Of a DNA stretch of 64,000 nucleotides, positions 27,612 to 49,852 are shown one piece after another (within the stretch, counting starts at the first letter, position 1; each line of letters starts with the position of its first letter). The notes beneath the pieces were generated by a model that was not told where the DNA came from, searched no databases, and saw only the letters and a program-made list of their open reading frames with translations. Location: positions 1,302,001-1,366,000 of the forward strand of contig NZ_CP015102.1 of assembly GCF_002214485.1 (NCBI RefSeq), read 5' to 3'. A program made the translations under genes and the position numbers. Origin of the DNA: Thermococcus pacificus. GTDB taxonomy: Archaea > Methanobacteriota_B > Thermococci > Thermococcales > Thermococcaceae.

Positions 27612-27794
27612 GGGAGAAAAGATAACTCCTTTTCTCTTGTTCTCTTGTATTGAGAAGGGCGGTATGAGCGTGTGTTTAGTTTCGTTATCTTTTTAATCCC
27701 CGTTGGCGCTGTGAAGCTTTCGGGTAACCATGCGATTTCATTTGGAAAGAAAACTATTTAAGTATGCTACCCTTTATTCCTATTGGTGGTTGTA

Positions 27795-29945
27795 ATGATC
27801 AGGCCCGTGCCGGTGAAAACCTCAATGTATTTGATAAACAGGTTCCTAGACGCGGAGTATGGCGATTTTGGATTCGTCATTGAGGATATGAAGCTGTTCC
27901 CCAACGGAAAGTATATTGCGGTTCTGGTAAGGCTGGATGACGACTCAAGGTTCATCCACGTTTTTGGGACGGGGGGACAGCCAGTTGGGGGATGGGAAAA
28001 GGGACTCCCTGTACCCTGTGCTGATGAGGCGATAATGCTCCCCGGTGAGGAAAAACTTGCCGTCTTTACGAAATGCGGGACGGGTGAGGTCAGAATATAC
28101 CCAGTTCAGTCAGCCGATCCGGAATCTGAGGTGTTACCAGTAAATTTTACCAGACTACCCTTCTACGTCAGCTTCACCCCTCGCGAGAGGTTGGTGGTGT
28201 TCTGTGATTACAAGGTTGAGTACTTTGCGCCCGGGGAGGTTGAGGTTATTAAGATTCCAACGCCGCAGGACGGGTTCGCTTATATCCATTCCGTGAAGGA
28301 CACTGACGACTCGCTTTACCTGCTTTACACATTTCGAAAGAATCAAAGGCAGCGCCTGGAGCTGGCGAAGATCCCCCTCCCGATGTTTCCGTACTATTCT
28401 TCGCTGGAATTCTGGGACGGCATTGAGGTCATCTCGAAGTCCAGTATAGTGCCTAGGGGAGGGCGACAGATAGGCGACATATGGTTGAAAGACGGCTCCG
28501 TTATGGCCACCCTCGGCACCAAGGGGGGGAACGAGGTTCACATTGTGGGTTCCGCAGGGGCAAAAACGGTACTGTTGCCTGGGGAGCTGGTATTCCTTTC
28601 GTTCACTTCCAGGGGACTTTTTGTCATAACCGGTGTTTACGGGGGAAACCTGAGGGCAGGGTTCATATCCTTTGATGTCCTCAACACATCCAAAAAGATA
28701 GGGGCGGAAGATTTCCAGGGAGAGGTGGTTCTGGGAAGGTACGTGCCCGGTGTCGTTGATCCTAAGTTCGCGGGGATTTCCAGGGACGGTGAGACGCTTT
28801 ACTTCGGAAGGAGCGGGGGTAAAAGCTCGGGCGGGACCTTTTATTACTTCCTCCGCAGGGAGGTTGACTACCTGTATCTCCTTGAGGCGCCAAAGGTGCA
28901 GAGCGGCGATTTAGAGCCTGAGGGCACCGCTTCCGAAGCACATGGTGGGGGACACCAGAAAGAGGGTCTGGATGAGAATCTTGGAGAGACGGTCCTGATT
29001 TCCCTGCTCAGGAGATTCAAACAGGTCATCATATACGGGCCACCCGGCACGGGTAAGACGCATCTGGCACTAAAAACTGCCAAGAACGCGGAGTTTGTCA
29101 CGTTCCACCAGTCGTACAGCTATGAGGATTTCGTGGAGGGGTTCAGGCCCATTGAAAAGGAGGAAAAAGTCGTATACACAGTCTCCGATGGCGTGTTTAA
29201 GCGCCTCGCCGTGAGGGCAATATACGATTCCCTGCCGGATGGATTCCGAAGACGTGGAGAGAACATGGAGTACGAAGACATGAAGATGGCCGTCCAGGAA
29301 TTCCTGAAAAAGAGACGGGCAGGGGATAAAACCCCCATTGTTCCCAGGAGGGAGTTCTACATAGTAATCGATGAGATCAACCGTGGCAATATAAGCAGAA
29401 TCCTGGGAGAGCTGATAACCCTTCTTGACCCGGATAAGAGGCTGGGTGCCCCTACAGAGGTCATAGTGACCCTTCCCTACTCACGGGAGCTTTTCGCACT
29501 GCCCCCAAACCTGTACATCATTGCCACCATGAACTCGGCCGATAGGAGCATAGCCCTGCTCGATATTGCACTCAGGAGGAGATTCGCATTCGTGGAACTT
29601 TCTCCGGATCCAGAGAAGCTCAGAGACGTGAACGTTGATGGCATAAACTTGGAACACCTCCTGACGAGGATAAACTCAATCATCGAGCAGGAGAAGGGTA
29701 AAGACTACACCCTAGGGCACGGTTACTTTCTCGATATACCCTCCGCAGACGATCCAAGGCAGGCACTCTACATGGTCTTCTACCACAAGGTGCTGCCCCT
29801 CTTCCAAGAGTACTTCTACGGGAACTGGGAGCATCTTAGATCCCTTTATCCGGGCTTCGAGTTCATAGACGAGAGGGGCAGAATAATCTGGATGGACCTC
29901 GATGAGTTCATAGATGCCCTCCGCAGGCTGGTGGGGTCCGAATGA
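27795..29945 (+). CDS. McrB-type AAA+ GTPase with an N-terminal beta-propeller-like region
   Basis: 716 residues. The C-terminal motor has Walker A GPPGTGKT at 415-422, Walker B YIVIDEINR at 522-530, and the McrB-clade motif MNSADRS at 579-585 followed by LLDIALRRRFAF. These define the McrB motor of type IV restriction systems. The first 360 residues lack the usual DUF3578 or EVE reader domains. They show about seven repeats of roughly 45-50 residues with beta-hairpin patterns (FPNGKYIAVLVR, LPGEEKLAVF, TPRERLVVF, DDSLYLLYTF, LKDGSVMATL, TSRGLFVITG, SRDGETLYF), as in a seven-bladed propeller. Start at ATG 27795 after GGTGGTTGTA. It overlaps mcrC by four bases. Confidence 0.85.
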   Translation: MIRPVPVKTSMYLINRFLDAEYGDFGFVIEDMKLFPNGKYIAVLVRLDDDSRFIHVFGTGGQPVGGWEKGLPVPCADEAIMLPGEEKLAVFTKCGTGEVRIYPVQSADPESEVLPVNFTRLPFYVSFTPRERLVVFCDYKVEYFAPGEVEVIKIPTPQDGFAYIHSVKDTDDSLYLLYTFRKNQRQRLELAKIPLPMFPYYSSLEFWDGIEVISKSSIVPRGGRQIGDIWLKDGSVMATLGTKGGNEVHIVGSAGAKTVLLPGELVFLSFTSRGLFVITGVYGGNLRAGFISFDVLNTSKKIGAEDFQGEVVLGRYVPGVVDPKFAGISRDGETLYFGRSGGKSSGGTFYYFLRREVDYLYLLEAPKVQSGDLEPEGTASEAHGGGHQKEGLDENLGETVLISLLRRFKQVIIYGPPGTGKTHLALKTAKNAEFVTFHQSYSYEDFVEGFRPIEKEEKVVYTVSDGVFKRLAVRAIYDSLPDGFRRRGENMEYEDMKMAVQEFLKKRRAGDKTPIVPRREFYIVIDEINRGNISRILGELITLLDPDKRLGAPTEVIVTLPYSRELFALPPNLYIIATMNSADRSIALLDIALRRRFAFVELSPDPEKLRDVNVDGINLEHLLTRINSIIEQEKGKDYTLGHGYFLDIPSADDPRQALYMVFYHKVLPLFQEYFYGNWEHLRSLYPGFEFIDERGRIIWMDLDEFIDALRRLVGSE

Positions 29946-31333
29946 GGGCCGTGACCATCTACGAGTTCCAGAGAAAGTATCTTCAGAGCCTTCACGCGGA
30001 GGGGATAAACGTATCCCCCTCCGAGCTCCAGAGGTTTTTTGAGTCCATAAACAGCATTTATGGCCGCGAGGGTGATGTCCTGAGCCTGAGATACGACGTC
30101 AGCAGGGGCGACTATTACATCCAGGCACATGGCAGCGTGGGTTTCGCATACTATCTCAGAGACGAGCCGTTCATGATACAGGTTCTTCCAAAGCCGTACA
30201 GAAACGACCCGGATCACAGGCGTTCCATGAAGTTCTTTCTCAGCCTTCTGAACCTGAGCGGCAACCTGGGCATGAGCCAACGCGATATAGAGCGCGCGGT
30301 CTCGGCATACAGGGGAGAGGACGAGCTGATCCATGAGATGTTCTTTTATCTCTACACTTCCCAACTTGGGCGGAAAATATTCCACGGGATGTATCGGGAG
30401 TACAGCGAGGTGGAAGAGAACTCCAAGACCATTCGGGGGAGGGTTCTCCTCTCACGGTTGATACGAAAGACACCGGGAAGTCTGGATATTCCAATTAGGC
30501 ACACGGTTCTGGGGATTGATAACCCCCTAAACAGGGTGCTGAAAGCCGCACTTGAGGTGGTGGCTGAGAACTCGAGCTGGGAAGGGGTTAGAAGGGAAGC
30601 CAGTGCCCTTCTGGAATACTTTAGGGAAGTTGGCAGGCTTAAGGACGATGACCCGGGCAGGGTGTCTTTTAATTCCCTCAATGAAAGGTTCAGGCCCGTG
30701 TACACCCTTGCGATGATAGTTCTCGAAGGTTTCGGCAGGGGACAACAGAGGGGCCTCGTTCAGCACGGGATTTTTATGGATATGGCACACCTCTTCGAAA
30801 CCCTTGTCTATCACACAATAAGAAGGGTCCTCCAAGGGGAGGCCACGGTGTACCGAGACTACAGGCTCCCCCACATCGTCGAGGGCGCTCAAAAAGTGGA
30901 AGCAAAACTGGGTGCCGTCTTTACCTTTGGCCCACCTCTCCCCGACATACTGGTTGCGACGGACTACGGAAAGTGCGTGATCGAGGTTAAGTACCGCAGC
31001 CTACTCGTGAAAATGATGGGGCAGTGGAGGAGAAAACTGGTGAGAACAAGCGAGGAGCTCTACCAGATATATTCATATTCCCGCCTTGCAGGTGGCAGTG
31101 CCGCCGTCGTGTACCCCCGCCTTGAGGGAGTCTACAATTACTGGATCCCTGACATGTTCGGGCCGGAGGAGAACATTCTCAGTTTCTTTGATGGGACTCC
31201 GTTCGGTCTTTTCGGATACGAGCTGTCCAGGGTGGGAAGGGAGGTCTTCATCACCAGGAATGGAGTCGTTCTCAGGGAGGGTGTTGCCAGGAACCTGCGG
31301 GAACATCTACTGTCCCTGTGTATGGGCAAATGA
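29942..31333 (+). CDS. mcrC: McrC-type nuclease subunit
   Basis: 463 residues. An N-terminal alpha/beta region with FAYYLRDEPFMIQVLPKPYR binds the McrB ring in known complexes. The helical middle contains MDMAHLFETLVYHTIRRVL. The PD-(D/E)xK nuclease core is visible as PDILVAT (334-340), VIEVKY (346-351) and the QIYSYS helix near 375. All predicted catalytic residues (D335, E348, K350) are present, so the nuclease looks active. Together with the upstream gene it forms a two-gene restriction system; no methyltransferase is adjacent, consistent with type IV. Confidence 0.9.
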   Translation: MRAVTIYEFQRKYLQSLHAEGINVSPSELQRFFESINSIYGREGDVLSLRYDVSRGDYYIQAHGSVGFAYYLRDEPFMIQVLPKPYRNDPDHRRSMKFFLSLLNLSGNLGMSQRDIERAVSAYRGEDELIHEMFFYLYTSQLGRKIFHGMYREYSEVEENSKTIRGRVLLSRLIRKTPGSLDIPIRHTVLGIDNPLNRVLKAALEVVAENSSWEGVRREASALLEYFREVGRLKDDDPGRVSFNSLNERFRPVYTLAMIVLEGFGRGQQRGLVQHGIFMDMAHLFETLVYHTIRRVLQGEATVYRDYRLPHIVEGAQKVEAKLGAVFTFGPPLPDILVATDYGKCVIEVKYRSLLVKMMGQWRRKLVRTSEELYQIYSYSRLAGGSAAVVYPRLEGVYNYWIPDMFGPEENILSFFDGTPFGLFGYELSRVGREVFITRNGVVLREGVARNLREHLLSLCMGK

Positions 31334-41962: not shown

Positions 41963-42013
41963 GGCGGTGAGGTTCGCGGGCCGATGACCCGCCCCGTCCC
42001 TGGAGGGAGAGCG

Positions 42014-42649
42014 ATGCACGACAACGGAAGCGATGGAGATGGTCTCCTGGAGTTTTACGCCAGCGAAGCCCTGACATGCCCGAGGAGGATATACTTTCGC
42101 CTGAAAGGCTATCCCGAGAGGTGGCCCGAGTTCGTGAAGGTTAGGCTAAACCAGGGCATCAACACCCACAGCGTCCTCGGTGAGATCCTTAAGAAGCGCT
42201 TCGGCTTTGAGCTTGAAAAGCACCTCGTTCTGCGCTCCAGCAGGCTCGGCTTTGAGATACACGGCAGGATAGATGCCATAGGGGACTTCCCCATCGAAAT
42301 CAAGGGCAAGACCAGCCTCCCGAGGATGCCCTACGACTACCACATGGCGCAGCTGAACATCTACATGCGCTGGGCCGAGGCGGAGTACGGCTACCTTTAC
42401 TACATCAAGCTCCACGAGGAACCGACGAAGATCATAAGCAAGATTGACTTCTCTCAGTTTCCCATCGTCAAGGGGCCGAACTTCAGGGCCTTTGAGGTCC
42501 CCTACGACAAGCACCTCTTCAAGGAGACGCTGAGGCATTTCTACAGCGTGAAAAAAGCCTATGAAAGGGAGAAACCGCCGAGGGGACAATACTCCTACCT
42601 CTGCAAGTTCTGTCCCTACCGGTATCTGTGCTATCCCGGTGAGGAATGA
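42014..42649 (+). CDS. Cas4/RecB-like Fe-S nuclease, not in a CRISPR locus
   Basis: 211 residues. A first Cys in EALTCPRRIYFRLKG and a C-terminal cluster CKFCPYRYLC supply four potential Fe-S ligands. The PD-(D/E)xK core appears as EIHGRIDAIGDFPIEIKGKTSLPRMPYDYHMAQLNIYMRW split over motifs II (GRIDAI), III (IEIKGK) and the QLNIY helix. These are the marks of the Cas4/AddB-type family. No CRISPR array or cas genes are nearby, so a repair or stand-alone role is as likely. The ATG follows GGAGGGAGAGCG. Confidence 0.78.
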   Translation: MHDNGSDGDGLLEFYASEALTCPRRIYFRLKGYPERWPEFVKVRLNQGINTHSVLGEILKKRFGFELEKHLVLRSSRLGFEIHGRIDAIGDFPIEIKGKTSLPRMPYDYHMAQLNIYMRWAEAEYGYLYYIKLHEEPTKIISKIDFSQFPIVKGPNFRAFEVPYDKHLFKETLRHFYSVKKAYEREKPPRGQYSYLCKFCPYRYLCYPGEE

Positions 42650-48092: not shown

Positions 48093-48893
48093 TCAACCCA
48101 GAACCAGCTCCTTCACATTAAAGGCCTCGTTCTCAAAGTCAATGTCAACGTAGAAGGCCGTACCGTTCACAACCGGCTTCCATTCGGCTTTGAAATACAG
48201 CTCAAGAGTCGAGGAGCCCACCGCGAAGAGCCCATCTTCCCTGAGGACGTTCTGCCTCACGTAGTCCCAGTTCTTTGGGTTCATTATGTAGAGCGGCTTT
48301 GAATAGGCCGTCACGAATCCGGCGGCGGTTCCATCAGACCCAAGGAACAGGGTACCGGTGTTGAAGCTCGTCTTTGCCGTTTTGGCCAACGCTGAGTAGT
48401 GCTTCAGCAGCTCACTGGCCTCAAAGGATTCAAGCCGCCTGCAGAGATAAGCGGCCATCGCGTAGCTGTCAGAGGCGCTTTCCAGGTCTTTTTCCTCGAA
48501 CTCCGCCATCTCGATTATTTTCCCCTTGTCCAGGTCACCGTTGTGGTATATCCAGTAGGAAAAGCCCCTCCTCGTTGAGAACCCGAAGGGCTGGGTGTTG
48601 AAGAGGTTTTTGGAACCTTGAGATGCAGCCCTTGAGTGGGCCATGAGGACGACGAAGCCTTCCAGCTCTGACTTGAGTGATTCTACGGCGTCAATATCTT
48701 CAAAAACCGGTCTGAGCGACCGGTAGTGTCTAACGTTCCCGTCTTTGAAGAGGACGTAGCCCCAGCCGTCCCTGTGCTCCCTTCCCTTTCCCCTGGCTTC
48801 CTTGTACGGGTCTTTCTCCGACGCCATAACGAACGCGTCCACGAGGGGTGGCATCTCATCCCCTCTACCCACGGCAAACAGTACCCTGCACAT
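48093..48893 (-). CDS. Class II glutamine amidotransferase
   Basis: 266 residues with the catalytic Cys directly after the initiator Met (MCRVLFAVG). RDGWGYVLF, MAHSRAASQGSKNLFNTQPF and the HNGDLDKGK loop match the stand-alone YafJ-type Ntn amidotransferases. It hydrolyses glutamine or a related amide; no synthase partner is adjacent. AGGTGAAAACTAA precedes the ATG. A divergent nuclease gene starts 87 bases away. Confidence 0.85.
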   Translation of the reverse strand: MCRVLFAVGRGDEMPPLVDAFVMASEKDPYKEARGKGREHRDGWGYVLFKDGNVRHYRSLRPVFEDIDAVESLKSELEGFVVLMAHSRAASQGSKNLFNTQPFGFSTRRGFSYWIYHNGDLDKGKIIEMAEFEEKDLESASDSYAMAAYLCRRLESFEASELLKHYSALAKTAKTSFNTGTLFLGSDGTAAGFVTAYSKPLYIMNPKNWDYVRQNVLREDGLFAVGSSTLELYFKAEWKPVVNGTAFYVDIDFENEAFNVKELVLG

Positions 48894-48979
48894 TTAGTTT
48901 TCACCTAGATAACTTTGCCCTAAGTCCCCAAAAGCTTTTAGGTCTCCCACGGGAATTGGTTAGAGCTGGAGGCATGGTC

Positions 48980-49852
48980 ATGGAGGGGCTTAGGAAGGCG
49001 GTAGTAAGGGTCAGGAGAAAGATAGCGTCCCACAGGAAACTCTACGAGAAGAACGAGGAGGCTGTAAAGCAGCACCTGATCGGGGAGATCTTCCAGGCCC
49101 TCGGCTGGGACTGGAACAACCCCGAGGAGGTCAGGCCTGAGGAGAGAACCGAGGACGGCAGGGCAGACTACGCGCTCATCCTCAACGGCTCGGTTTTTGC
49201 CTACGTCGAGGCCAAGAACCTTAGTGTCAATATCCTCAAGCGCGACGAACCCCTCCGCCAGCTTGCCCGCTACTGCTTCAACTCAGGCGTTAAGTACGGC
49301 ATCCTCACCAACGGAGCGGTGTGGATCGCAATCAAAGCGTTTGAGGAAGGCTCATCCCTCCACGACCGCATCCTGATCTCCGCCAACATCGAGAAGGAGC
49401 CCCTTGAGAAGGTCGTTCTGAAGCTCTCCTTCCTGTCAAAGTCGAGGATAGTAGAGATGGAGAGGCTTTCCTCCCTCCTGCGAGCCCTTGAGCTGAGCTT
49501 CTCCGGTCTCAGAAGGGAGGGTTATTCAGATGATATGCTCTTATCATACCTGACGTCGAGGGAGGGCTCGAGCACGATTCCCGTCGAGGAGCTGAGCGGG
49601 AACGAAACCCCCAGGGCGGCCTACGTCTACGAGGGCGGCTGGAAGCTCCTGCCCCTGCCTGAGCAGAGCATCAAGGGGGTTCTGCTTTCCGTCCTGCTCT
49701 ACCTTGAAAAGCGCTCCCAGGGCCGCAAGGCCGAGGAAATCCGGAAGGCCTACGAGCACATCAGAAGAATCCAGCTGGAGCCCAAGACGGCCCTTGAAGT
49801 GCTCAAAAAGCTGGGAGAAGAGGAGAAGCTGAGGATTTCGGTCGAGGTCTAA
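48980..49852 (+). CDS. Stand-alone HsdR-N-like nuclease-fold protein
   Basis: 290 residues. The N-terminal half has the type I restriction R-subunit pattern: HLIGEIFQALGWDWNNPEEVRPEER, then TEDGRADYALI and VFAYVEAKN giving the D...ExK nuclease triad, and LARYCFNSGVKYGILTNGAVW. The motor helicase of HsdR is absent; instead a 120-residue C-terminal part of unknown fold follows (LPLPEQSIKGVLLSVLLYL). Archaeal genomes often carry such solo genes. ATG 48980 has GGAGG at seven bases. The stop abuts the convergent HypE-like gene. Confidence 0.75.
   Translation: MEGLRKAVVRVRRKIASHRKLYEKNEEAVKQHLIGEIFQALGWDWNNPEEVRPEERTEDGRADYALILNGSVFAYVEAKNLSVNILKRDEPLRQLARYCFNSGVKYGILTNGAVWIAIKAFEEGSSLHDRILISANIEKEPLEKVVLKLSFLSKSRIVEMERLSSLLRALELSFSGLRREGYSDDMLLSYLTSREGSSTIPVEELSGNETPRAAYVYEGGWKLLPLPEQSIKGVLLSVLLYLEKRSQGRKAEEIRKAYEHIRRIQLEPKTALEVLKKLGEEEKLRISVEV

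What the first reader, a model, noticed from the sequence alone, without database searches (positions are those of the whole stretch)
27795..31333. McrBC-type restriction system whose McrB has a propeller-like N-terminal half
Seen: a complete McrB AAA+ motor (Walker A, Walker B, MNSADRS) and a McrC with an intact PD-(D/E)xK site, overlapping by 4 bp. The N-terminal 360 residues of McrB carry about seven repeats of hairpin-like blocks of the form xDGxxLxxxx, as in beta-propellers. Known: characterised McrB proteins read modified DNA through DUF3578, EVE/YTH-like or other compact domains. Inference: a propeller in that position would be a different sensing surface, perhaps for protein, RNA or another phage signal. 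This is my best candidate for an undescribed defence variant.
Basis: partly seen in the sequence, partly recalled or inferred. Interest (0 to 1): 0.75.

Follow-up and report, generated by a model that had tools for sequence, protein, structure and literature searches.

The report
McrBC restriction pair with propeller sensor
A heat-loving archaeon carries a two-gene DNA-cutting defence system (McrB and McrC) in which the part of McrB that normally reads chemical marks on foreign DNA is replaced by what is predicted to be a seven-bladed propeller; its counterpart in Thermococcus kodakarensis is already known to keep plasmids out, but the propeller itself appears not to have been described.

Summary
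Window 27795-31333 encodes a 716-aa McrB (canonical AAA+/GTPase motor) and a 463-aa McrC with an intact PD-ExK site, overlapping by 4 bp. McrB residues 1-367 match no Pfam, PADLOC, NCBIfam, PHROGs or PDB sequence. AlphaFold models of this domain and of a 45%-identical relative (pLDDT 83 and 81, pTM 0.83 and 0.84) are seven four-stranded blades, and both retrieve beta-propellers from the PDB. TM-scores are moderate (at best about 0.53). The domain occurs in 21 Thermococcus genomes and nowhere else found. It is always fused to the same motor, paired with McrC, and in one chromosomal slot; trees show lateral exchange between species. The T. kodakarensis orthologue is TK0795-TK0794. Its deletion was published in 2026 to raise transformation by replicating plasmids, also with dam-/dcm- DNA, at a growth cost; the protein co-purifies with chromosomes. 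That paper treats it as an ordinary methylcytosine McrBC. Best explanation: an active McrBC-type restriction complex whose propeller is the target-sensing module. The ligand is unknown and may not be a Dam/Dcm methyl mark. New variant of a known kind.

The parts
27795..29945 (+). mcrB: 716-aa fusion of propeller-like N-terminal domain and McrB AAA+/GTPase motor
   Evidence: 20 full-length relatives
27795..28895 (+). McrB residues 1-367: predicted seven-bladed beta-propeller (N-terminal helix 8-22, then blades from about 28-73 to 326-364; blade 7 poorly modelled)
   Evidence: AlphaFold pLDDT 83, pTM 0.83; relative pLDDT 81, pTM 0.84; Foldseek PDB; no sequence-family hit
28389..28421 (+). PYYSSLEFWDG, residues 199-209: conserved aromatic insert of blade 4; candidate contact surface (inference)
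   Evidence: P199, Y200, Y201, F206, W207 invariant in 20 relatives
28896..29000 (+). variable, mostly acidic linker between propeller and motor
   Evidence: 22-44 residues, poorly conserved
29001..29942 (+). McrB AAA+ GTPase domain
   Evidence: E=2e-72 to T. gammatolerans McrB 6ut3 and 3e-34 to E. coli McrB 6hz4; AAA_5
29037..29060 (+). Walker A GPPGTGKT
29358..29387 (+). Walker B YIVIDEINRG
29529..29549 (+). McrB signature MNSADRS (NxxD)
29942..31333 (+). mcrC: 463-aa McrC nuclease subunit
   Evidence: PF10117 E=1.1e-51; TgMcrC 6ut5_G E=2e-21
30941..30994 (+). PD-(D/E)xK catalytic stretch PDILVATDYGKCVIEVKY
   Evidence: conserved in all complete relatives
27753..27763 (+). TATA-like promoter element (ACTATTTAAGT), read by eye; suggests the pair is its own transcription unit

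Best explanation
This is an active McrBC-type restriction complex with an unusual sensor. McrB should form a GTP-driven hexameric ring on which the McrC nuclease docks. The N-terminal beta-propeller takes the place of the DUF3578, YTH, EVE or B3 reader and decides which DNA (or DNA-bound factor) the ring is loaded on; McrC then cuts. Shown by sequence here: motor and nuclease motifs, operon, obligatory fusion. Predicted here: propeller fold. Shown by others for the orthologue: deletion of TK0794-TK0795 raises transformation by replicating plasmids, and TK0795 is found on isolated chromosomes. Inferred: hexamer and McrC docking by homology to TgMcrBC, the propeller as specificity module, and that its trigger is not limited to Dam/Dcm methylation.
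For: Motor matches TgMcrB at E=2e-72 and EcMcrB at 3e-34, with Walker A/B, NxxD and arginine finger kept in all 21. McrC nuclease site kept. Two models from different members of the family give the same 7 x 4 strand layout, and their PDB hits are overwhelmingly propellers: AMBRA1, Cdc20, NirN, prolyl oligopeptidases, DDB1, RACK1, plexin. 21 Thermococcus genomes carry it, always fused and always upstream of McrC. Orthologue identification: G010 gene order top6B-top6A-orf-orf-mcrB-mcrC matches TK0799=top6B and TK0795=GTPase subunit (PMC7325993). Computed mass 79.68 kDa against 79.7 reported. Pair lengths of about 3.56 and 3.92 kb match the published deletions of about 3.5 and 3.9 kb. Restriction phenotype: PMC13385129. 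Defence-like evolution: mcrBC diverges fast and its tree conflicts with the flanking genes (AU p=4e-5, 2e-3 and 7e-5). The slot is closed, with 20-127 bp between neighbours, in at least nine relatives without it.
Against: TM-scores are moderate (mostly 0.35-0.53), blade 7 is modelled badly, and only 5 sequences were in each alignment. The propeller is mildly acidic in all members (pI 5.0-6.6), not an obvious DNA binder. McrC position Arg263 of TgMcrC (Lys157 in E. coli), which stimulates the GTPase, is Ser, Pro or His in all complete relatives, and TgMcrB Trp223 (guanine stacking) is His, Tyr, Gln, Lys or Met; GTP use and McrC stimulation are therefore unproven. The restriction phenotype comes from one paper, on one orthologue about 52% identical. 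The gain held for replicating but not clearly for integrating plasmids, and growth fell, so a housekeeping role is not excluded.
Confidence: 0.72

Rival explanations
1. Ordinary modification-dependent Type IV McrBC: the propeller is simply another reader of a modified base (for instance an aromatic pocket for m6A, m4C or a hypermodified phage base).
For: Known McrB readers are modified-base or DNA-sequence readers with unrelated folds (PMC7680126). The family has many invariant aromatics, including Y200, Y201, F206, W207, Y316, Y350, Y351, Y359 and Y361. T. kodakarensis transformation is better with unmethylated plasmid.
Against: In PMC13385129 the strain ranking was similar with dam-/dcm- DNA, and unmethylated plasmid helped all strains, including the one lacking both McrBCs, so the methylation effect is largely independent of this system. 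No propeller reader of modified bases in an McrB was found in the papers searched.
Confidence: 0.3
2. Chromosome-maintenance or stress function: the pair works on host DNA (repair, chromatin, replication forks) and plasmid restriction is a side effect.
For: Fixed slot next to topoisomerase VI genes; TK0795 on isolated chromosomes; slower growth of the deletion strains.
Against: Absent from about two thirds of the genus, exchanged laterally, fast-evolving, and the empty slot is tolerated. Being on chromosomes is also expected of any DNA-scanning restriction complex.
Confidence: 0.15
3. The N-terminal half is a large all-beta domain but not a closed propeller (for example a beta-solenoid or a stack of sandwiches).
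For: Moderate TM-scores and high rmsd in the fold search; weak internal repeat signal; shallow alignments.
Against: Two independent models, pTM 0.83 and 0.84, both with about 28 strands in groups of four; hits with probability 1.0 almost all to propellers.
Confidence: 0.1

Closest known systems
T. kodakarensis McrBC1, TK0795-TK0794 (PMC13385129)
   Same: Same family: about 52% (McrB) and 46% (McrC) identical over the full length, same fusion, same operon, same chromosomal slot next to topoisomerase VI
   Different: Published as an ordinary 5-methylcytosine system; no mention of a propeller was found; the specificity claim there rests on family name
T. gammatolerans McrBC (PDB 6ut3-6ut8, PMC7680126)
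   Same: Closest solved motor (44% identity over the AAA+ domain) and McrC
   Different: N-terminal domain is a YTH fold reading N6-methyladenine; Arg263 of McrC and Trp223 of McrB are not conserved here
E. coli K-12 McrBC
   Same: AAA+ GTPase with NxxD motif, partner PD-(D/E)xK McrC encoded in the same operon
   Different: Reader is DUF3578 for methylcytosine; no propeller
E. coli defence protein with Mrr nuclease and seven-bladed propeller (Vassallo et al., PMC9519451)
   Same: Propeller joined to a DNA-cutting module in antiphage defence
   Different: Single protein with an Mrr nuclease, no McrB motor; sequence relation not tested here
CoCoNuTs (PMC11090510)
   Same: McrB/McrC-derived systems with exchanged accessory domains
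   Different: NxD motif, coiled coils, predicted RNA targets, nearly absent in archaea; here NxxD, and a propeller in place of the coiled coil

Membership tests
McrBC restriction systems | McrB AAA+ motor with Walker A/B and MNxxDRS signature | tested here: met
McrBC restriction systems | McrC with PD-(D/E)xK nuclease, encoded downstream in the same operon | tested here: met
McrBC restriction systems | McrC Arg/Lys (TgMcrC Arg263, EcMcrC Lys157) that stimulates the McrB GTPase | tested here: not met
   Ser, Pro or His at the aligned position in all complete relatives; alignment only, and two other Thermococcus McrCs also lack it, so this is not a membership-defining loss
McrBC restriction systems | GTP rather than ATP hydrolysis | not testable with these tools
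   TgMcrB Trp223 is replaced; needs biochemistry
McrBC restriction systems | Limits entry of foreign DNA in vivo | not testable with these tools
   not testable on the window; shown by others for the TK0795-TK0794 orthologue (PMC13385129)
Known McrB reader domains (DUF3578/ADAM, YTH/EVE/PUA-like, B3) | Sequence match of the N-terminal domain to such a domain | tested here: not met
   the domain also does not match the N-terminal domains of ten other Thermococcus McrBs
Beta-propeller fold | Several four-stranded blades in a closed disc | tested here: met
   by prediction only: seven blades in two models, propeller hits; ring closure and blade 7 uncertain
WD40 repeat family | Pfam WD40 match | tested here: not met
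Type IV (modification-dependent) restriction | Cleavage requires a DNA modification | not testable with these tools
   published effect persists with dam-/dcm- DNA, which does not exclude other marks

The most novel reading that the evidence does not exclude
A McrBC branch that is not modification-dependent: the propeller recognises a protein or DNA structure typical of replicating foreign elements (for example a replication initiator, a virus or plasmid packaging factor, or rolling-circle intermediates), turning a Type IV enzyme into an activity-sensing restriction system, with two separate propeller families in T. kodakarensis (TK0795 and the McrB of McrBC2).
Probability: 0.3. Interest if true: 0.8.

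Novelty: new variant of a known kind. Interest (0 to 1): 0.62.

Why it matters
McrBC systems are widespread and their targets are set by the N-terminal domain; every characterised one read about here uses a compact DNA-reading domain. A large propeller in that place suggests a different kind of trigger, in a genetically workable archaeon where the knock-out already exists and has a strong phenotype. It also gives a reason to revisit that knock-out: the published account assumes methylcytosine recognition, which the domain architecture does not support. What the propeller senses is thus directly testable with existing strains.

Tried and rejected
Sequence-only searches of the N-terminal half (Pfam, PADLOC, NCBIfam, PHROGs, PDB) gave no credible match; the CD48 and antibody hits are low-significance beta-sandwich noise. 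No homologue in IMG/VR, phages or plasmids, in 94 other genomes of the phylum, or in two further archaeal phyla, so a virus or plasmid origin could not be traced. A simple vertical-housekeeping reading was rejected by the tree tests. Domain swapping of the propeller between motors inside the family was not seen: N-terminal and AAA+ trees agree in their main branches. Strong DNA binding from charge alone was looked for and not found. Conservation points weakly to the top face (0.75 against 0.69, p=0.04) and to a conserved blade-4 insert on the other face, so no face could be singled out.

Full report
Observation. The window is a stretch of a 1.79-Mb single-contig chromosome of what is most likely a Thermococcus: the relatives that could be named are Thermococcus. 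At 27795-29945 and 29942-31333 on the + strand lie two genes overlapping by 4 bp. The first encodes McrB (716 aa), the second McrC (463 aa). The AAA+ half of McrB matches the solved McrB of T. gammatolerans (E=2e-72) and of E. coli (E=3e-34), with all motor motifs. McrC matches PF10117 (E=1e-51) and keeps P-D...E-x-K. So the pair is a complete McrBC by sequence.

The N-terminal half. Residues 1-367 have no match in Pfam, PADLOC, NCBIfam or PHROGs, nor in the PDB by sequence, alone or as a profile of 20 relatives. AlphaFold with a five-sequence alignment gave pLDDT 83 and pTM 0.83 and a layout of seven groups of four strands. A second prediction starting from a relative 45% identical gave pLDDT 81 and pTM 0.84 and the same layout. 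Foldseek against the PDB returned, for both, WD40 proteins, prolyl-oligopeptidase propellers, NirN, DDB1, RACK1, plexins and the like at E down to 1e-6. The TM-scores are only moderate (best about 0.53 to AMBRA1), so the claim is 'propeller by prediction', with blade 7 (pLDDT about 40-60 in its outer part) unsettled. Profiles of the predicted blades resemble each other weakly but above shuffled controls.

Relatives. 21 genomes, all of the window's genus, encode the domain at 43-87% identity (the window's own included); none of the 94 other genomes of the phylum searched, nor 545 genomes of two further archaeal phyla, nor viral, phage or plasmid collections do. A peptide-pattern scan of one genome per species for bacteria and archaea found only Thermococcus. 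In every case examined (20 loci) the domain is fused to McrB, followed by an overlapping McrC (McrC is cut by a contig end in one), and the pair sits in the same slot between a DUF1699-like/HTH gene (orf133) and mptA, downstream of the topoisomerase VI genes (one of the neighbours lies off the contig in two loci). In at least nine relatives without the pair the two neighbours are 20-127 bp apart; in others about 0.8 kb lies between them, the size of a DUF4129 gene that accompanies mcrBC in some genomes.

Evolution. mcrBC diverges far faster than its neighbours and does not follow them: the window and L024 share 88% McrB and 91% McrC but only 64-68% in the two adjacent upstream genes, while L028 shares 93% of the DUF530 gene upstream but 63% of McrB. 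The data of the flanking genes reject the window+L023+L024 and window+L024 groupings seen in mcrBC (AU p=3.8e-5 and 2e-3), and mcrBC data reject the flank grouping of L024 with the T. kodakarensis set (p=7e-5). The clades tested were chosen after seeing the trees, so the p-values are optimistic. This is lateral exchange at a fixed site, as expected of defence genes.

The T. kodakarensis link. Genome G010 (2,088,737 bp, the size I recall for strain KOD1) has the orthologue. Its gene order places mcrB four genes after top6B; TK0799 is top6B and TK0795 the 'GTPase subunit' in PMC7325993. The computed mass of its McrB from a GTG start is 79.68 kDa against the 79.7 kDa listed there. The lengths of its two mcrBC pairs, 3.56 and 3.92 kb, agree with the published deletions of TK0794-TK0795 (amplicon 4.8 to 1.3 kb) and TK1009-TK1010 (5.6 to 1.7 kb). 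So TK0795-TK0794, 'McrBC1', is this family. Alon et al. 2026 (PMC13385129) report that deleting it gave the best transformation of all strains (about 1 in 1000 cells with unmethylated replicating plasmid), a similar ranking of strains with methylated and unmethylated DNA, little benefit for integrating plasmids, and slower growth. TK0795 was found by mass spectrometry on isolated T. kodakarensis chromosomes.

Mechanism. Shown: motifs, fusion, operon, and (by others, for the orthologue) restriction in vivo. Predicted: propeller. Inferred by homology: GTP-driven McrB hexamer with docked McrC. Inferred: the propeller selects the target. Two deviations from the solved systems weaken the full analogy: TgMcrC Arg263, the residue that stimulates GTP hydrolysis, aligns without gaps to Ser, Pro or His, and TgMcrB Trp223, which stacks on guanine, is replaced. 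The domain is mildly acidic (pI 5.0-6.6) in all members. The published persistence of the effect on dam-/dcm- DNA argues against Dam/Dcm methylation as the sole trigger, but other E. coli marks were not removed.

Known or new. Described McrB readers are DUF3578, YTH, B3 and PUA/EVE-like (PMC7680126, PMC11090510, PMC12707154). The main text of the McrBC census has no 'propeller' or 'WD40' (its supplements could not be read), and full-text searches for McrB or McrBC with propeller or WD40 gave no such McrB. A propeller joined to an Mrr nuclease is known in E. coli defence (PMC9519451). I therefore call this a new variant of a known kind. A side lead: the McrBs of T. kodakarensis McrBC2 and of G001 have 400-residue N-terminal halves, 27% identical to each other, whose first blade-like stretch aligns in register with this family (score 26.1 against at most 22.0 in 40 shuffles), so a second propeller family is possible but unproven.

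Noticed in passing
L076:1751-4237 (+) and L077:1518-3971 (+): Two further Thermococcus McrBs (one is McrBC2 of T. kodakarensis) have about 400-residue N-terminal halves with no Pfam match that look propeller-like in their first blade; possibly a second propeller-McrB family.
   Followed up: partly
L086:2015-6753 (own genome, G000:C1 about 1573-1578 kb): The window's genome has a second, unrelated McrBC with a 1120-aa McrB; its close relative L085 carries an EVE-domain match inside the AAA+ domain.
   Followed up: partly
window 48848-49852 (+): Solitary gene with the N-terminal nuclease part of Type I restriction subunit R (HSDR_N), no HsdM or HsdS recognised next to it by eye.
   Followed up: no
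window 41984-42649 (+): Solitary PD-(D/E)xK (Cas4-like) nuclease gene.
   Followed up: no
window 30677-30691 (McrC LNERF) and all complete propeller McrCs: The residue corresponding to the GTPase-stimulating Arg263 of TgMcrC is Ser, Pro or His; also Ser in McrBC2 of T. kodakarensis.
   Followed up: partly
L028:6443-7228 (-) and the same place in L030-L033: A DUF4129 membrane protein gene lies between mcrC and mptA in some species and is missing from this slot in the window.
   Followed up: partly
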